Part shown: positions 160-3,928 of the stretch, one piece after another | Numbering within the stretch: the stretch's first letter is position 1 | Layout of the letters: the number at the start of each line of letters is the position of its first letter | Assembly (NCBI GenBank): GCA_002690445.1 | Contig: NZER01000175.1 | Coordinates: forward strand, 1-9,364 | Length of the DNA: 9,364 bases | Reading direction: 5' to 3' | DNA from: Candidatus Pacearchaeota archaeon | GTDB lineage: Archaea > Nanoarchaeota > Nanoarchaeia > Pacearchaeales > GW2011-AR1 | Position numbers and translations under genes: made by a program | Notes under the pieces: generated by a model | Databases searched by the model: none | Told to the model about the DNA's origin: nothing | The model's input: the letters and a program-made list of their open reading frames with translations, nothing else

Positions 160-342
160 TTAATTGTAACTGCTTAAACAATTAACAAAAATCTTCAAAC
201 AATAGAAAGCGAAGTACACAAACTACAAATATCCACTAAAAAACAGCAATCCCCTAAATTCCAACTATAGGCTTAAACCTATCCCTTAAAGACAATTCGG
301 CTTACCCACACCGAAACGAAATCTACTAGGTTGCAGAAAAGC
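160..342. other. Non-coding A-rich stretch
   Basis: No gene is supported here. The stretch holds an 8-bp AT-only inverted repeat (160-167/178-185) and a short inverted repeat ATAGG...CCTAT (266-281). A direct repeat CTAGGTTG at 326-333 recurs at 370-377. The stretch leads into the TACTTT site array. Confidence 0.5.
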
Positions 343-823
343 GTACTAAAGTACGTAGGACGCAGTGCCCTAGGTTGGGTTGGTTGGAGGATAAACCATA
401 CTTTGGTACAGTTTTGTCTGAGTCATCTCCAAGAAACAAGAACATACTTCTATATTCTATACCTATAAACAAAGGGTTTTATATTTGTAAACTTACAGAG
501 TAGACACAGTAAAGTATATATACGGTATTCCCACGTTTTTCCCAGCTTTTAGGACAAATATACTTTCGTATAACACGCCGTACTCACTCCAGCCTGATTA
601 TCGTGCTAAAGTATGTCAATAGCCGACATGAAGACTGTTTTTGGTCATACTTTAAGGAAAGTACCCCAATTTAGAGCAATACAATATACTTTCCTAGTAA
701 AGTACATCAAGCCAGCCTCCTCCCCCACCCCGTGTTGCTCACATACTTTACCACTAAAGTACACAGGCTCTATTCAGTTTATACGTGAAGTCAGAAGGGG
801 TTTCTATACTTTATCTAAAGTAC
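343..823. repeat. Array of ATACTTT/AAAGTAC inverted sites
   Basis: Thirteen copies of the hexamer TACTTT or its complement AAAGTA fall in 480 bp. By eye I found only one other copy in the window, at 4648, inside a gene. Four sites are full inverted repeats with a fixed left arm ATACTTT and right arm AAAGTAC: 647-664 and 806-823 (4-bp spacer), 686-705 and 743-762 (6-bp spacer). Three are compact 12-bp versions of the form RTACTTTNGTAY: 343-354 (read on the minus strand), 398-409 and 560-571. Lone half-sites lie at 511-516 and 608-613. Dispersed near-palindromes like these usually bind a repressor, a partition protein or a replication initiator. No gene for such a protein is visible here, so the role is inference. 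Confidence 0.8.
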
Positions 824-1197
824 AGGACCAAGAGCCTCCCATCTAAGGGTGGTGTGTTACCCCCTAAGTATTCGTATTTATTAGGTTTTTTTTACCATCT
901 CCCCAAGGAGACCCTGGTGCTGCTTCATAACAATAGGCGAAGCTAACAATATAAATTGTGGTAAACAATATCAAAAGCAATATTAAAATTTTTAGAAGGC
1001 AATTTGACAATTTTATTAAGCAATAAACAATATCGAAAGCAATATCAAACAATATCAAACAATATAATTTCTTTTATGAGGGTACTTACCAAGATGAGAC
1101 TGTGCCCCCCTAGATAAAATCTAGCAATAGGACTTCCTTTATCGAGAGACTACCCGTACCTATTTTTTGACTTCATCGTGTTTATTACGATTTAAAA
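824..1197. other. AT-rich non-coding region with CAATAT repeats
   Basis: No convincing gene. The main feature is the CAATAT row, described separately. The stretch also has a T-run (885-892) just before the inverted repeat TCTCC-CCAA-GGAGA. The T-run lies on the wrong side for a plus-strand terminator, and the minus strand would give an A-run. A perfect 6-bp hairpin CTAGAT-AAA-ATCTAG lies at 1110-1124. ATCGT...ACGAT (1175-1191) lies just beyond the stop of the 62-residue gene on the minus strand, without a U-run. Confidence 0.5.
947..1065. repeat. Iteron-like CAATAT repeats, about 10 bp apart
   Basis: CAATAT occurs at 947, 966, 978, 1028, 1040, 1050 and 1060, with a related CAATAA at 1021. 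The last four copies are 12, 10 and 10 bp apart, so they lie on nearly the same face of the helix. The longer unit CAATATC(A/G)AAAG appears at 966 and 1028, and CAATATCAAA twice in tandem at 1040-1059. The DNA is very AT-rich. Phased direct repeats in AT-rich DNA are typical of replication origins (iterons plus an unwinding element) and of some operator arrays. Which applies here is not shown. Confidence 0.6.
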
Positions 1198-1386
1198 CTA
1201 TATTTTTCTAAATCGCATGTTTTGTCTAGTTCTTAGCTTATTTATTTTCCTAGACAGTTGAGAATCTGAAACAAAAGATGTATGAGGAAAGTTTTGATAC
1301 CCCCTACAATCTTGTATTGCCTTTTCTACGGCTCGTTTGTATTCGTATGAGTCGTAAACGAATTTGAATAGTTGCCAATCGTTCAT
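1198..1386 (-). CDS. Small basic protein of unknown function, downstream of the amidoligase
   Basis: A 62-residue ORF with ATG start and TAG stop. A strong SD, GGGAGGTG in the mRNA sense (1392-1399), sits 7 nt before the start and is the best evidence that the gene is real. The N-terminal part is aromatic and acidic (DWQLFKFVYDSYEY); the C-terminal 20 residues are rich in Lys/Arg (RKINKLRTRQNMRFRKI), which could bind nucleic acid. There is no signal peptide or membrane segment. It lies 98 nt downstream of the amidoligase on the same strand and could share its transcript. The gap contains one copy of the 27-bp inverted repeat and a 6-bp hairpin (1425-1440). No family recognised. Confidence 0.6.
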   Translation of the reverse strand: MNDWQLFKFVYDSYEYKRAVEKAIQDCRGYQNFPHTSFVSDSQLSRKINKLRTRQNMRFRKI

Positions 1387-1448
1387 GCTGACACCTCCCG
1401 TTGTTTGAATTGAGCAGTTTAAACACTTGCTTAGGTGTGAATTTATCC

Positions 1449-1475
1449 CTGTTCGTGAATGGTATCACTATTGTC
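1449..1475. repeat. Left copy of the inverted repeat flanking the amidoligase gene
   Basis: This 27-bp segment matches the reverse complement of 2484-2510 at 25 of 27 positions. The match extends outward to 33 bp (1443-1475 against 2484-2516) at 29 of 33. It ends 9 bp from the amidoligase stop codon. Its centre is GTGA-ATGGTA-TCAC, a small dyad. The two mismatches with the right copy are A/G changes at the first and last positions of the 6-bp dyad loop, leaving the GTGA/TCAC arms intact. Confidence 0.8.
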
Positions 1476-1484
1476 ATTTAATTT

Positions 1485-2468
1485 TTAGATTCTCGAGTAA
1501 AGTTTTTCGAGATAGTCGCACAATCCAGTTATCAAGATTGTTGCGTGGTCACGATTAGATTTCGCTAATTTCAATGTTCGTTTTTCAAACTCAGCACAAA
1601 GTGTCAAGTTTCCAGATGCGTATTCGAACACTTGGCGAAATGCCCAAGCGAAACCTTGATTTTTCTTGCTCAAAACCATAGCCCAACCGATATCGTTCTT
1701 TCCGAAAAACTCGAAAATTCGTTTTTCTTGCAATCGGTTTTCGGTACTGGTTAACCATTCTCTTTGATTCACCCTAAACACCCTTCTGAATGTTTTTTGT
1801 CTTGAGCAATATTTGACTAAATTCTGCGTGAATTTAATCCAGTTTGTCAATTTTCTATCATCAACAGTGAAGATGTTTCTTCTAAATTCCAATGTTTGGA
1901 ATCTTCGTGATATCCTCAAAGAGTTATATTTTCCTTTCGGAACTTTATCCCAGAAAAGCTCTCGGTCATCTTTATACCTTCTTGCTAATTTCTGGACATT
2001 GAGTGTGTAGTAATAGTCAAGTTCTGAGACATTGGCAACATGTTCTGTTGACCTTCTTGAACTTGGTATTACTAAGTCGATAACCCTTTCAAAGTTGAAG
2101 TAGAATGTTATCACGTTTGAGATTTGCAAAGGTGTAAGATTTTCACAATCATGATGTATGTGAAACCCAGTGCGTGGGGTTTCACTTGCGTTGTAGTTAG
2201 CGTTCAAATAACTAACCACTTGCGTCCAGATTTGCATTGCTTGATTTCCTGAAGTTCGAAAATCATCAGCAGTGCATATTTCTGAATAATCATCTGAATT
2301 GTGAAAACTTGCGTCTGTTTTGATAATAAACTTATTACCAAACTCATTCGCTATGCCTTCGGCAATCTCATCGCGTGAGTAGCCCGAATGTTGGAATTCC
2401 AATTCAATTCCAATTTGATTATCGAGCCATTGATTTTTCTTTGTTAAAGTGTAGTTTGTGATTATCAT
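1485..2468 (-). CDS. Putative amidoligase (Amidoligase_2 family)
   Basis: A 327-residue protein with the motif order of the Amidoligase_2 family (COOH-NH2 ligases with a glutamine-synthetase-like fold). It shows GIELEF at 20-25 and KTDASF at 50-55 with the conserved D and S. E63 follows, then TGFHIHHD at 100-107, a middle helix with E127, SRR at 137-139, and TLEFRR at 192-197. In the family, the acidic and histidine residues are predicted to bind metal and ATP for joining a carboxylate to an amine. The substrate is unknown; cell-wall peptides or protein tagging have been proposed for relatives, including phage-borne ones. The C-terminal 110 residues are helical and charged. There is no signal peptide, so it is probably cytoplasmic. 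The ATG is supported by GGAGGT (2474-2479) 5 nt upstream. The gene and its SD are enclosed by a 27-bp inverted repeat. The family call is strong; the reaction is inferred. Confidence 0.85.
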   Translation of the reverse strand: MIITNYTLTKKNQWLDNQIGIELEFQHSGYSRDEIAEGIANEFGNKFIIKTDASFHNSDDYSEICTADDFRTSGNQAMQIWTQVVSYLNANYNASETPRTGFHIHHDCENLTPLQISNVITFYFNFERVIDLVIPSSRRSTEHVANVSELDYYYTLNVQKLARRYKDDRELFWDKVPKGKYNSLRISRRFQTLEFRRNIFTVDDRKLTNWIKFTQNLVKYCSRQKTFRRVFRVNQREWLTSTENRLQEKRIFEFFGKNDIGWAMVLSKKNQGFAWAFRQVFEYASGNLTLCAEFEKRTLKLAKSNRDHATILITGLCDYLEKLYSRI

Positions 2469-2473
2469 TTTTT

Positions 2474-2479
2474 ACCTCC
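2474..2479 (-). promoter_or_regulatory. Ribosome binding site of the amidoligase gene
   Basis: GGAGGT on the minus strand, 5 nt before the ATG at 2468. It fixes the start and lies inside the inverted-repeat pair, so the enclosed unit carries its own translation signal. Confidence 0.8.
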
Positions 2480-2483
2480 ATTA

Positions 2484-2510
2484 GACAATAGTGACACCAC
2501 TCACGAACAG
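2484..2510. repeat. Right copy of the inverted repeat flanking the amidoligase gene
   Basis: Reverse-complement match (25 of 27) to 1449-1475. It lies 15 bp upstream of the amidoligase ATG, where an operator or 5' leader would be. The motif GACAATA begins this copy (2484-2490) and recurs just outside it (2512-2518), so this side is a little more elaborate than the left one. Its central dyad is GTGA-GTGGTG-TCAC on the minus strand. Confidence 0.8.
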
Positions 2511-3068
2511 TGACAATAACCGTCTTGTTCGTTGTGGCAATGAAGTCATCAACTTCCTAACCTAGTTGACAATGTTGTCCATATCTTTAGCAATATAGAC
2601 AATAGGCACGGGTATGCACACTTAGACGCTTGCTATCCTAATGGCTAAGGACAAAAGGTAAACCACAATATAGTGTATGATTTCCTTGGCTCGTGGTGCA
2701 GTCTCTCGACGAAAGGTCAGTAATCGCTTCTCCCACTCTAACAATACCTATACACTGGTGTGTTCTCGTCCATGAGACAATAATCTTTCGTGTCTCTCGC
2801 CGACTTACATTCGGTATCGTAGTCTCACGATTAAACAATATGCTTTTTGTTCGACCACTGGATTAAGTTCTCCTCGATGTACCCGTCATGTTCGGATTTC
2901 CTCCCCTTAAATCCGTTTTAAATTTCCTAACTATTTAAATTATAATATGCATTTCAGTCCGAATACAAGAACTATTTTTATTTATTTTCCTCATAAAACC
3001 CCTATAAATAGGGCAATTTATGAGTATGCCATAATGAACAAGGCTCAAAGATGGTACAACCTAAAGAC
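2511..3068. other. Gene-poor region upstream of the amidoligase, with recurring short motifs
   Basis: I find no supported gene. The region holds GACAATA or close variants at 2512, 2568 (GACAATG), 2598 and 2776, and GTCTCTCG at 2701 and 2792 with a variant at 2822. GTCTCTCG also occurs on the minus strand at 1143-1150. Small hairpins lie at 2542-2556 (GAAGT...ACTTC) and 2568-2579. A 7-bp stem CGGATTT/AAATCCG (2893-2899/2909-2915) is followed by TTTTAAATTT. A TATAAT box lies at 2941-2946 on the plus strand, with only a poor -35. The minus-strand promoter for the amidoligase should lie here, but I cannot place it with confidence. Confidence 0.5.
2991..3023. repeat. Nested hairpin between two minus-strand transcription units
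   Basis: The outer arms TCATAAA (2991-2997) and TTTATGA (3017-3023) pair perfectly. Inside them CCCTAT (3000-3005) and ATAGGG (3008-3013) pair as well. It lies 45 bp beyond the stop of the gene at 3069-3344. A minus-strand transcript would have an A-rich tail after it, not a U-run, so it is not a standard intrinsic terminator. It could be a 3'-end stabiliser, a factor-dependent end, or a protein-binding palindrome. Confidence 0.55.
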
Positions 3069-3344
3069 CTAATTGGCTGCTATATTATTTTTGTCTATAT
3101 ACCTTCTATCTACTATACAAGCTACTGGTATAACTATTAGGTTTCCTACGCTATCTATGGTATCTCCACAGAAGGAAAAATCTTGGGCGACGGTTATTGA
3201 TGTGTCGTTTTCTTTAATGATGTATCCTGTTGAGACACAAATGGCGAGTTCTTCTTCTAGGGCTTCATCGAGGTCTCTCCAGTCGGTGGAGGATTTTGCG
3301 TCATGCCAATAAATGCAGACATGTCTGTAAGGTATCTTTTTCAA
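3069..3344 (-). CDS. Small conserved-type phage protein of unknown function, TTG start
   Basis: A 91-residue protein starting at TTG (3342-3344). A long SD, GGGAGG in the mRNA sense (3354-3359), lies 9 nt upstream and supports this start. The pattern is HVCIYWHDA near the N-terminus, then W22 and LDEALEEE, STGYIIKEND, ITVAQDF and NLIVIPVACIVDRRYI near the end. This resembles small phage and microbial hypothetical proteins with a 'W-D...sl-e...G-i..e....i.i......IP...I' layout: a short beta-rich fold whose function is unknown to me. It has no signal peptide or membrane segment. It reads away from the structural operon, whose first start is 83 nt beyond its own, so the two units are divergent. 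Plus-strand ORFs over the same bases are judged to be shadows of this gene. Confidence 0.7.
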   Translation of the reverse strand: MKKIPYRHVCIYWHDAKSSTDWRDLDEALEEELAICVSTGYIIKENDTSITVAQDFSFCGDTIDSVGNLIVIPVACIVDRRYIDKNNIAAN

Positions 3345-3394
3345 GGACAGTACCCTCCCATATTATTTATGACAATGATAGTACGATGAAAAGA

Positions 3395-3422
3395 TTGTTT
3401 TTTGTTCATGACAGTTTAATAT
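3395..3422 (+). promoter_or_regulatory. Candidate promoter for the structural operon
   Basis: TTGTTT (3395-3400) and TAATAT (3417-3422), 16 bp apart, fit a weak sigma-70-type promoter. It lies in the only intergenic gap before the connector gene. Transcription would begin about at the ATG (3428), giving a nearly leaderless message, which agrees with the lack of an SD there. AT-rich DNA gives such matches easily, so the call is tentative. Confidence 0.25.
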
Positions 3423-3427
3423 ATAGT

Positions 3428-3928
3428 ATGGCATATTATACAACGGTACAAAAAGTTTATAGTCTATATCCACGAGTAGGCTCATTATCTTCAGTAAATT
3501 CATCAGCCGTGTCTTTTTACATTGACCAAGCAGAAAACGAAATTAATGGCTATTTAATCAACAACTACACGCTACCATTCAGTTCTACACCCCCTATTAT
3601 AGAGTCTTTATCTACTGAATACGCATTAGTAAAAATTTTGGAACGATTCTTTACCCAAGAAATAGGAAGCGACAATAGATGGGTAGAAAATAGACATAAA
3701 TATGTTAAAGAATACCTAAGCCAAATCAATTCAGGAGATGTAGGGTTATATAATTCTTCTCTTGAGATTATCGCCTACAAAGACGGAGATGCAATTTTTT
3801 CAAATACAATGAATTACAATCCGACCTTTACTGTGCTCAATCCAACCTTGCAACAGATAGATGGCGATAGACTTACAGATGAATGGGACGATGTTAAAAG
3901 CGAGTCCTATAAACCCAACTTAACATAA
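3428..3928 (+). CDS. Head-tail connector protein (DUF1320 / Mu gp36-like)
   Basis: A 166-residue protein beginning MAYYTTVQKVYSLYP. The layout is that of the DUF1320/gp36-type connectors: an N-terminal helix, then SAVSFYIDQAENEINGYL (about 27-44), a proline-rich turn (LPFSSTPPIIESL), then a long helix EYALVKILERFF. Such proteins form a ring between portal and tail. The reading frame is open further upstream to 3230, but that extension overlaps the minus-strand gene, is basic and unlike the family, and is rejected. An ATG at 3386 is possible but has no SD either. The start at 3428 is chosen by family fit. The TAA overlaps the ATG of the next gene by one base, suggesting translational coupling. 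Confidence 0.7.
   Translation: MAYYTTVQKVYSLYPRVGSLSSVNSSAVSFYIDQAENEINGYLINNYTLPFSSTPPIIESLSTEYALVKILERFFTQEIGSDNRWVENRHKYVKEYLSQINSGDVGLYNSSLEIIAYKDGDAIFSNTMNYNPTFTVLNPTLQQIDGDRLTDEWDDVKSESYKPNLT

What the first reader, a model, noticed from the sequence alone, without database searches (positions are those of the whole stretch)
1443..2516. Amidoligase gene with its own ribosome binding site enclosed by a 27-33 bp inverted repeat
The copies at 1449-1475 and 2484-2510 match in inverted orientation at 25 of 27 bases (29 of 33 when extended outward). They sit 9 bp after the stop and 15 bp before the start. A gene plus SD between matched inverted repeats could be a transferable cassette, an invertible segment, or an mRNA whose two ends pair. 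The two mismatches are G-G versus A-A changes at matching ends of the central loop, while the GTGA/TCAC arms are kept, which hints at a protein site under selection.
Basis: partly seen in the sequence, partly recalled or inferred. Interest (0 to 1): 0.7.

Follow-up and report, generated by a model that had tools for sequence, protein, structure and literature searches.

The report
Phage gene with self-pairing RNA ends
The two ends of the messenger RNA of one phage gene, an amidoligase, look selected to pair with each other over 33 bases: a related phage has the same pairing in the same place with a largely different sequence, so the pairing itself seems to be what matters.

Summary
The inverted repeat is real (29/33) and beyond chance. 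Best reading: an RNA stem, not a cassette border or operator. A relative (L003, amidoligase 72% identical) has a 33-nt inverted repeat at matching offsets (15 nt before start, 10 nt after stop), but the middle 23 nt of each arm match the window at only 9 of 23 positions. Between window and L003, 12 of 33 pairs changed on both sides and still pair; slid controls give 0-2. In the mRNA 3 of 4 window mismatches and 4 of 4 L003 mismatches are G.U, so 32/33 and 33/33 pair. In window, L002 and L003 the 5' arm also forms a local leader hairpin that leaves its last 12 nt mostly free. The folds exclude each other, suggesting a switch completed when the 3' arm is transcribed. Likeliest output: RNase III excision or protection of the amidoligase mRNA; inferred, untested. 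Limits: two lineages; L002 breaks one pair; remoter amidoligase loci tested lack it. New variant of bacterial 5'/3'-UTR pairing (icaR, hbs).

The parts
2484..2516 (-). 5' arm (A5), directly upstream of the amidoligase ribosome-binding site
1443..1475 (-). 3' arm (A3), 9 nt after the amidoligase stop codon; pairs with A5 in the minus-strand RNA (32 of 33 pairs, 3 of them G.U)
1485..2468 (-). amidoligase ORF, 327 aa (PF12224 Amidoligase_2; PHROG amidoligase)
2475..2479 (-). Shine-Dalgarno GGAGG of the amidoligase, left outside the arm
   Evidence: read from sequence; folds
2496..2538 (-). competing local hairpin: segment 2526-2538 pairs with A5 residues within positions 8-21 (5 + 7 pairs, small internal loop, plus 4 inner pairs); excludes the A5-A3 pairing
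   Evidence: z -2.8 (window), -2.6 (L002), -4.5 (L003)
2484..2495 (-). last 12 nt of A5, mostly unpaired with the upstream segment; candidate toehold for A3 (inference)
1198..1386 (-). downstream 62-aa ORF, kept after the amidoligase in the L002 contig (98%) and L003 (about 50%); in L003 another small ORF lies between
   Evidence: L003 sequence
3069..3344 (-). upstream 91-aa ORF (phrog_25889, unknown function), first ORF of the minus-strand cluster

Best explanation
The repeat encodes a long-range RNA stem ('panhandle') that joins the 5' and 3' ends of the amidoligase cistron in the minus-strand transcript. SHOWN by sequence comparison: the complementarity is kept while the sequence changes, in two lineages, at nearly fixed distances from start and stop; and in both the 5' arm has a competing leader hairpin in about the same place. 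INFERRED: during transcription the leader hairpin forms first; when the 3' arm emerges about 1 kb later it starts pairing at the 12 mostly free nucleotides of the 5' arm, displaces the hairpin and closes the stem. The short hairpin would be a poor substrate for the double-strand nuclease RNase III and the 27-33 bp stem a good one (general knowledge), so the likeliest output is cleavage of completed transcripts only, releasing a separate amidoligase mRNA with trimmed ends, as happens for rRNA and for 23S intervening sequences. My odds: end-pairing RNA under selection about 0.8-0.85; hairpin/stem switch about 0.45; RNase III excision as the output about 0.4. The number below is for RNA-level end pairing being the right account of the repeat.
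For: Covariation: paired window 32/33, L002 31/33, L003 33/33; window versus L003 16 pairs unchanged, 4 changed on one side, 12 on both sides; partners slid by 1-3 columns give 0-2. The middle 23 nt of each arm are 9/23 identical between lineages against 666/982 in the ORF, yet complementary within each genome. Wobbles: 3 of 4 (window) and 4 of 4 (L003) non-Watson-Crick positions are G.U on the coding strand; the opposite strand scores lower (window 54.0 v 67.5; L018 = L002 contig 51.5 v 60.5; L019 = L003 54.0 v 72.0). Whole-transcript minimum-energy folds contain the pairing (window, L003); mean pairing probability 0.93, 0.92, 0.99. Flank-to-flank binding z -5.9, -5.6, -5.9 against 100 shuffles each. 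Of 328 ORFs of 100 aa or more, the two amidoligase ORFs score 72.0 and 60.5, the third 30.0. Local hairpin in all three.
Against: Only two independent lineages carry it; the 12 double changes are one comparison, and the structure was found on these same sequences. L002, close to the window, has two changes in the 5' arm: one turns a pair into A.C, the other leaves a mismatch. Remoter amidoligase loci are at background: 9 of 12 tested (flanks there mostly taken from the match start, not the start codon) and 12 of 15, of which L035 is marginal (z -2.4, 1 of 100 shuffles as good); six loci are in both sets and some are near-duplicates. The local hairpins of the two lineages are offset by about two positions; in one of four L003 leader lengths its probability drops to about 0.4. 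No consistent effect on the ribosome site: with v without the 3' arm, start-codon openness falls in window and L002 (0.40 to 0.24, 0.37 to 0.23) and rises in L003 (0.41 to 0.50); against the nascent leader, Shine-Dalgarno openness in L003 falls from 0.91 to 0.36 and is about unchanged in window (0.21 to 0.19) and L002 (0.25 to 0.18). No transcript data; translating ribosomes could prevent pairing; host and its RNase III unknown.
Confidence: 0.8

Rival explanations
1. The stem forms, but its output is not excision: it shields the mRNA from nucleases (as described for B. subtilis hbs) or damps translation until the 3' end is altered (as for S. aureus icaR).
For: Same architecture class in print (PMC7821165 passages; PMC3868564 abstract and one section). 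In L003 the nascent leader buries the start codon (openness 0.01), the full fold frees it (0.50), and the Shine-Dalgarno goes the other way (0.91 to 0.36).
Against: The arm ends a few nt before the Shine-Dalgarno and does not cover it; openness changes differ between lineages. A 27-33 bp duplex is expected to invite RNase III (general knowledge).
Confidence: 0.35
2. DNA-level repeat: terminal inverted repeats of a mobile gene cassette, or an invertible segment, with arms kept alike by a recombinase or by arm-to-arm copying.
For: Inverted copies enclose exactly one gene; the 5' arm begins and ends with TTGTC in both lineages; L023, a relative by gp36, has no amidoligase by tblastn and a different 265-aa ORF in that region.
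Against: Same place and orientation in window, L002 and L003; arm sequences differ between lineages; no target-site duplication seen beside the arms (read by eye); no transposase or recombinase family among the 9 window ORFs and 6, though several had no match at all; mismatches fall on the G.U side (7 G.U, counting those shared by window and L002 once, against 1 A.C).
Confidence: 0.1
3. Two operator sites for a DNA- or RNA-binding protein, each a near-palindrome (GTGA-N6-TCAC).
For: The palindrome is present in both window arms.
Against: Absent in L003; arm patterns hit one contig each in viral contigs; the pattern occurs only twice in the window record.
Confidence: 0.03

Closest known systems
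S. aureus icaR mRNA, 5'-UTR/3'-UTR pairing (PMC3868564; abstract and one discussion section seen)
   Same: [quoted passage not shown] the duplex is an RNase III substrate there; the authors suggest a 5' fold displaced by the 3' UTR, like the order proposed here.
   Different: There the pairing covers the Shine-Dalgarno through UCCCC; here the stem stops a few nt short of it. Here 33 pairs supported by covariation between two lineages, in a phage, with another ORF downstream.
B. subtilis hbs mRNA 5'/3'-UTR interaction (Braun 2017, known here only through passages of the review PMC7821165)
   Same: Ends of one mRNA pair; effect on stability.
   Different: 14 nt interaction that protects from RNase Y; here 33 nt.
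23S rRNA intervening sequence of Coxiella with S23p ORF (PMC4990558, passages seen)
   Same: An ORF enclosed by inverted repeats that form a 28-bp stem cleaved by RNase III.
   Different: Lies inside rRNA and is rapidly degraded after excision; here the ORF has its own ribosome site and lies among phage genes; no Rfam match up to E 1 in the window.
16S/23S rRNA processing stems; hok mRNA (recalled; no paper on them read, hok named in the PMC3868564 section)
   Same: Long-range stem across 1-3 kb cut by RNase III; fold that changes once the 3' end exists.
   Different: rRNA is not translated; hok is a short toxin mRNA.

Membership tests
bacterial mRNA with 5'-UTR/3'-UTR pairing | extended complementarity between the two UTRs of one cistron | tested here: met
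bacterial mRNA with 5'-UTR/3'-UTR pairing | pairing conserved by compensatory change | tested here: met
   12 of 33 pairs changed on both sides, window v L003; two lineages only
bacterial mRNA with 5'-UTR/3'-UTR pairing | both arms lie on one transcript | not testable with these tools
   no RNA data
icaR-type translational control | pairing covers the Shine-Dalgarno | tested here: not met
   arm ends upstream of GGAGG; SD openness 0.19 v 0.16, 0.18 v 0.21, 0.36 v 0.38 with v without 3' arm; but nascent L003 leader 0.91
RNase III-excised element (rRNA stalk, 23S IVS) | cleavage in the stem by RNase III | not testable with these tools
   stem length suits it (27-33 bp); no cleavage data
23S IVS | embedded in rRNA | tested here: not met
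   no Rfam match up to E 1 in the window
mobile cassette with terminal inverted repeats | same end sequence in the second lineage or at other loci | tested here: not met
   shared only with the near-identical L002 contig
invertible segment | both orientations found | tested here: not met
   one orientation relative to gp36 in window, L002 contig and L003 (3 of 3); reads not available
Amidoligase_2 (PF12224) | profile match above curated cut-off | tested here: met
   45 bits, cut-off 22; catalytic residues not checked

The most novel reading that the evidence does not exclude
A transcript-completion switch: the 5' arm is first held in a leader hairpin with a free 12-nt toehold and is handed over, about 1 kb later, to the 3' arm, whose first bases lie near the leading edge of a ribosome stopped on the stop codon (footprint size recalled). 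The phage thereby cuts out or stabilises one complete cistron of an operon without a protein of its own, and the three strands co-evolve. This would be an mRNA counterpart of rRNA processing stems with built-in strand displacement.
Probability: 0.3. Interest if true: 0.75.

Novelty: new variant of a known kind. Interest (0 to 1): 0.6.

Why it matters
The bacterial 5'/3'-UTR pairings named in the papers I saw are few (icaR, hbs, RNAIII). This one has 33 pairs, twelve two-sided changes between two phage lineages, leaves the ribosome site outside the stem, and comes with a competing hairpin in about the same place in both lineages. If right, phages can fence one gene of an operon at RNA level, and the recipe for finding it (inverted repeats flanking an ORF whose mismatches are G.U on the coding strand) can be used to look for more.

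Tried and rejected
Protein-site palindrome: absent in L003. Dispersed repeat: window arm pattern found in 1 viral contig, L003 arm pattern in 1, exact matches only. Mobile cassette and inversion: see rivals. Promoter inside the arm: the scanner found 15 promoter-like sites in 900-3500 against 8.9 expected, weak ones near the arm among them; the arm sequence differs in L003, so not pursued. Sequestration of the ribosome site: no consistent sign. Relatives: amidoligase in viral contigs with single sequences (3 loci each) and an alignment (12 loci), gp36 alignment (42 loci), downstream small ORF (2 loci); genome contigs gave 43 pattern matches, none a relative; phage records gave no DNA match and 22 remote amidoligases by protein, whose flanks I did not examine. 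Among the loci tested only the window, the L002 contig (held also as L001, L007, L018, L059, L060) and L003 (also L019) have the stem. The protein search found an identical cluster (P0001, 19 contigs, longest 37,656 bases) and two further close amidoligases, P0002 (71%) and P0003 (61%), whose DNA I could not reach; metagenome contigs was not scanned because its cap is 0.

Literature: 8 counted searches, (one search was an input error; one search returned unrelated papers). I saw only titles and abstract starts of the listed papers, and none of those showed a phage mRNA of this design; open-licence PMC only, few wordings. I do not claim that it is absent from print.

Left out of counts: one search took 15 amidoligase loci; L008, L011, L012, L014, L039, L040, L043, L051 and L052 were not given to it (duplicates, cut-off or very remote), nor second copies of contigs already in it. 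In one search, 13 were given and L011 was too short. One search left out duplicate loci (L005-L007, L018, L019, L026, L027) and ORFs too near a contig end; the window's ORF was merged with its twin in L001.

Full report
What is there. The window is a 9364-base virus record with a plus-strand head-tail and tail gene run from about 3428 (Mu gp36-like, tail tube, tape measure) and a minus-strand cluster: 91-aa ORF, a 600-base stretch without a clear gene, the 327-aa amidoligase (PF12224, 45 bits), a 62-aa ORF. The inverted repeat is the longest that one search lists: 1443-1475 and 2484-2516, 29 of 33 complementary. In 100 dinucleotide shuffles the best DNA inverted-repeat score was 19 (observed 21) and the best RNA-helix score 44.0 (observed 67.5), so the repeat is unlikely to be chance, clearly so when read as RNA.

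The relatives decide what kind of thing it is. L002 is a near-identical phage (97.7% over 5.3 kb). L003, a 4.2-kb contig, is a second lineage: amidoligase 72% identical, gp36 99% identical, same gene order except for one extra small ORF between the amidoligase and the 62-aa homologue. L003 has a 33-nt inverted repeat with 88% complementarity and 1006 nt between its arms, 15 nt before the start and 10 nt after the stop, but of largely different sequence. On the alignment of the three loci the middle 23 nt of each arm agree at 9 of 23 positions between window and L003, against 666 of 982 in the ORF. Pairs: window 32/33, L002 31/33, L003 33/33; 16 unchanged, 4 changed on one side, 12 on both sides; sliding the partner by 1-3 columns leaves 0-2 double changes and 9-19 paired positions per sequence.

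The strand is told by the wobbles. In the minus-strand RNA the window has 3 G.U and one A.G; L003 has 4 G.U and nothing else; L002 has the same 3 G.U as the window, plus G.G and A.C. On the other strand each G.U would be an A.C mismatch, and the helix scores lower there. A DNA mechanism that keeps two arms alike has no reason for this side. It counts against the cassette and inversion readings, as do the same place and orientation in all three genomes. The numbers are small (7 G.U against 1 A.C).

It is specific to this gene and this clade, as far as tested. Of 328 ORFs of 100 aa or more in the held loci, the amidoligase ORFs of L003 and L001 score 72.0 and 60.5 for a flank-to-flank helix; the next scores 30.0 and the 99th percentile is 25.7. 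Among 42 gp36-anchored loci scanned for helices within 3 kb, only L018 and L019 (second copies of the two relatives) exceed 50; the next best is 48.0 in L050. Remoter amidoligase loci are at background: 9 of 12 tested and 12 of 15, with a marginal value in L035 (z -2.4). So the stem looks like an addition of this lineage, not part of the enzyme family.

A second fold. The 5' arm also pairs locally. In window and L002 the segment 2526-2538 pairs with residues within arm positions 8-21 (-18.5 kcal/mol, z -2.8 and -2.6); in L003 the equivalent segment makes a hairpin with a 13-bp run (-14.7, z -4.5). In leaders of 90-430 nt most arm residues from 8 to 21 in window and L002, and from 9 to 21 in L003, pair upstream with probability of about 0.8 or more, and residues 22-33 mostly do not. 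Exceptions: residues 15-16 in window and L002; L003 at 300 nt (about 0.4); L003 at 90 nt, where residues 25-28 also pair. The apical part keeps ATTGTC in both lineages. With the whole cistron present, arm-to-arm pairing has mean probability 0.93, 0.92 and 0.99. The two changes that separate L002 from the window in the 5' arm fall at residues 6 and 15, unpaired in the local hairpin; with about half the arm unpaired in it, two of two is weak evidence.

How it most likely works. Nascent leader: hairpin, free toehold. After transcription of the gene: the 3' arm, which begins 9-10 nt after the stop codon, pairs first with the free end of the 5' arm, then displaces the hairpin. The closed stem is long enough for RNase III. 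I take excision or end-trimming of the amidoligase mRNA as the likeliest output (about 0.4), protection or translational control as the next. Ribosome-site openness does not decide: with v without the 3' arm the Shine-Dalgarno hardly changes and the start codon changes in opposite senses between lineages; against the nascent leader L003 gains at the start codon (0.01 to 0.50) and loses at the Shine-Dalgarno (0.91 to 0.36), while window and L002 lose at the start codon (0.42 to 0.24 and 0.23). Apart from the values, this paragraph is inference.

Comparison. The review PMC7821165 (passages) and PMC3868564 (abstract and one section) describe icaR, hbs and RNAIII as bacterial mRNAs whose UTRs pair. 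PMC4990558 (passages) describes an ORF enclosed by a 28-bp stem that RNase III cuts, inside 23S rRNA. The present case works like these and fits the broad class of 5'/3'-UTR pairing, but it fails the icaR feature of covering the Shine-Dalgarno and the IVS feature of lying in rRNA. I call it a new variant of a known kind.

Main weakness: two lineages, one comparison, no RNA data.

Noticed in passing
window and L001 throughout; L023 about 3340-3490: GACAAT is over-represented and strand-biased: window 19 on plus, 1 on minus (the one is inside the 3' arm, 1470-1475); L001 42 to 2; L017-L058 together 230 to 49 relative to gp36 (second copies included), control TAACAG 181 to 87. In the L001 ORFs checked it occurs in all three frames (9, 5, 4), and it also occurs between genes, with tandem arrays in L001 6180-6209 and L023. 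It may be a polar motif (replication, packaging or recombination).
   Followed up: partly
window 2863-2915 (-): A short leader ORF (MTGTSRRT in the window; by eye MTGTSRRS in L002 and MTGTSRKIESTA in L003) whose Shine-Dalgarno sits in the loop of a hairpin CGGATTT/AAATCCG; in L003 the stem is CAGATTT/AAATCTG, a two-sided change (alignment).
   Followed up: partly
window 300-850; L001 8140-8800; L004 5075-5480: Stretch without clear genes and with many TACTTTA...TAAAGTA stem-loops; L001 holds an extra unit of roughly 100 bases relative to the window (inverted repeats in L004).
   Followed up: no
L001 6325-7077; L004 6560-6997: A gamma-glutamyl cyclotransferase-like gene in L001 (phrog_2520), in the same phage as the amidoligase; the L004 ORF looks alike by eye.
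   Followed up: no
window 3000-3013 (-): Terminator-like hairpin between the 91-aa ORF and the leader, partly changed in L003.
   Followed up: no
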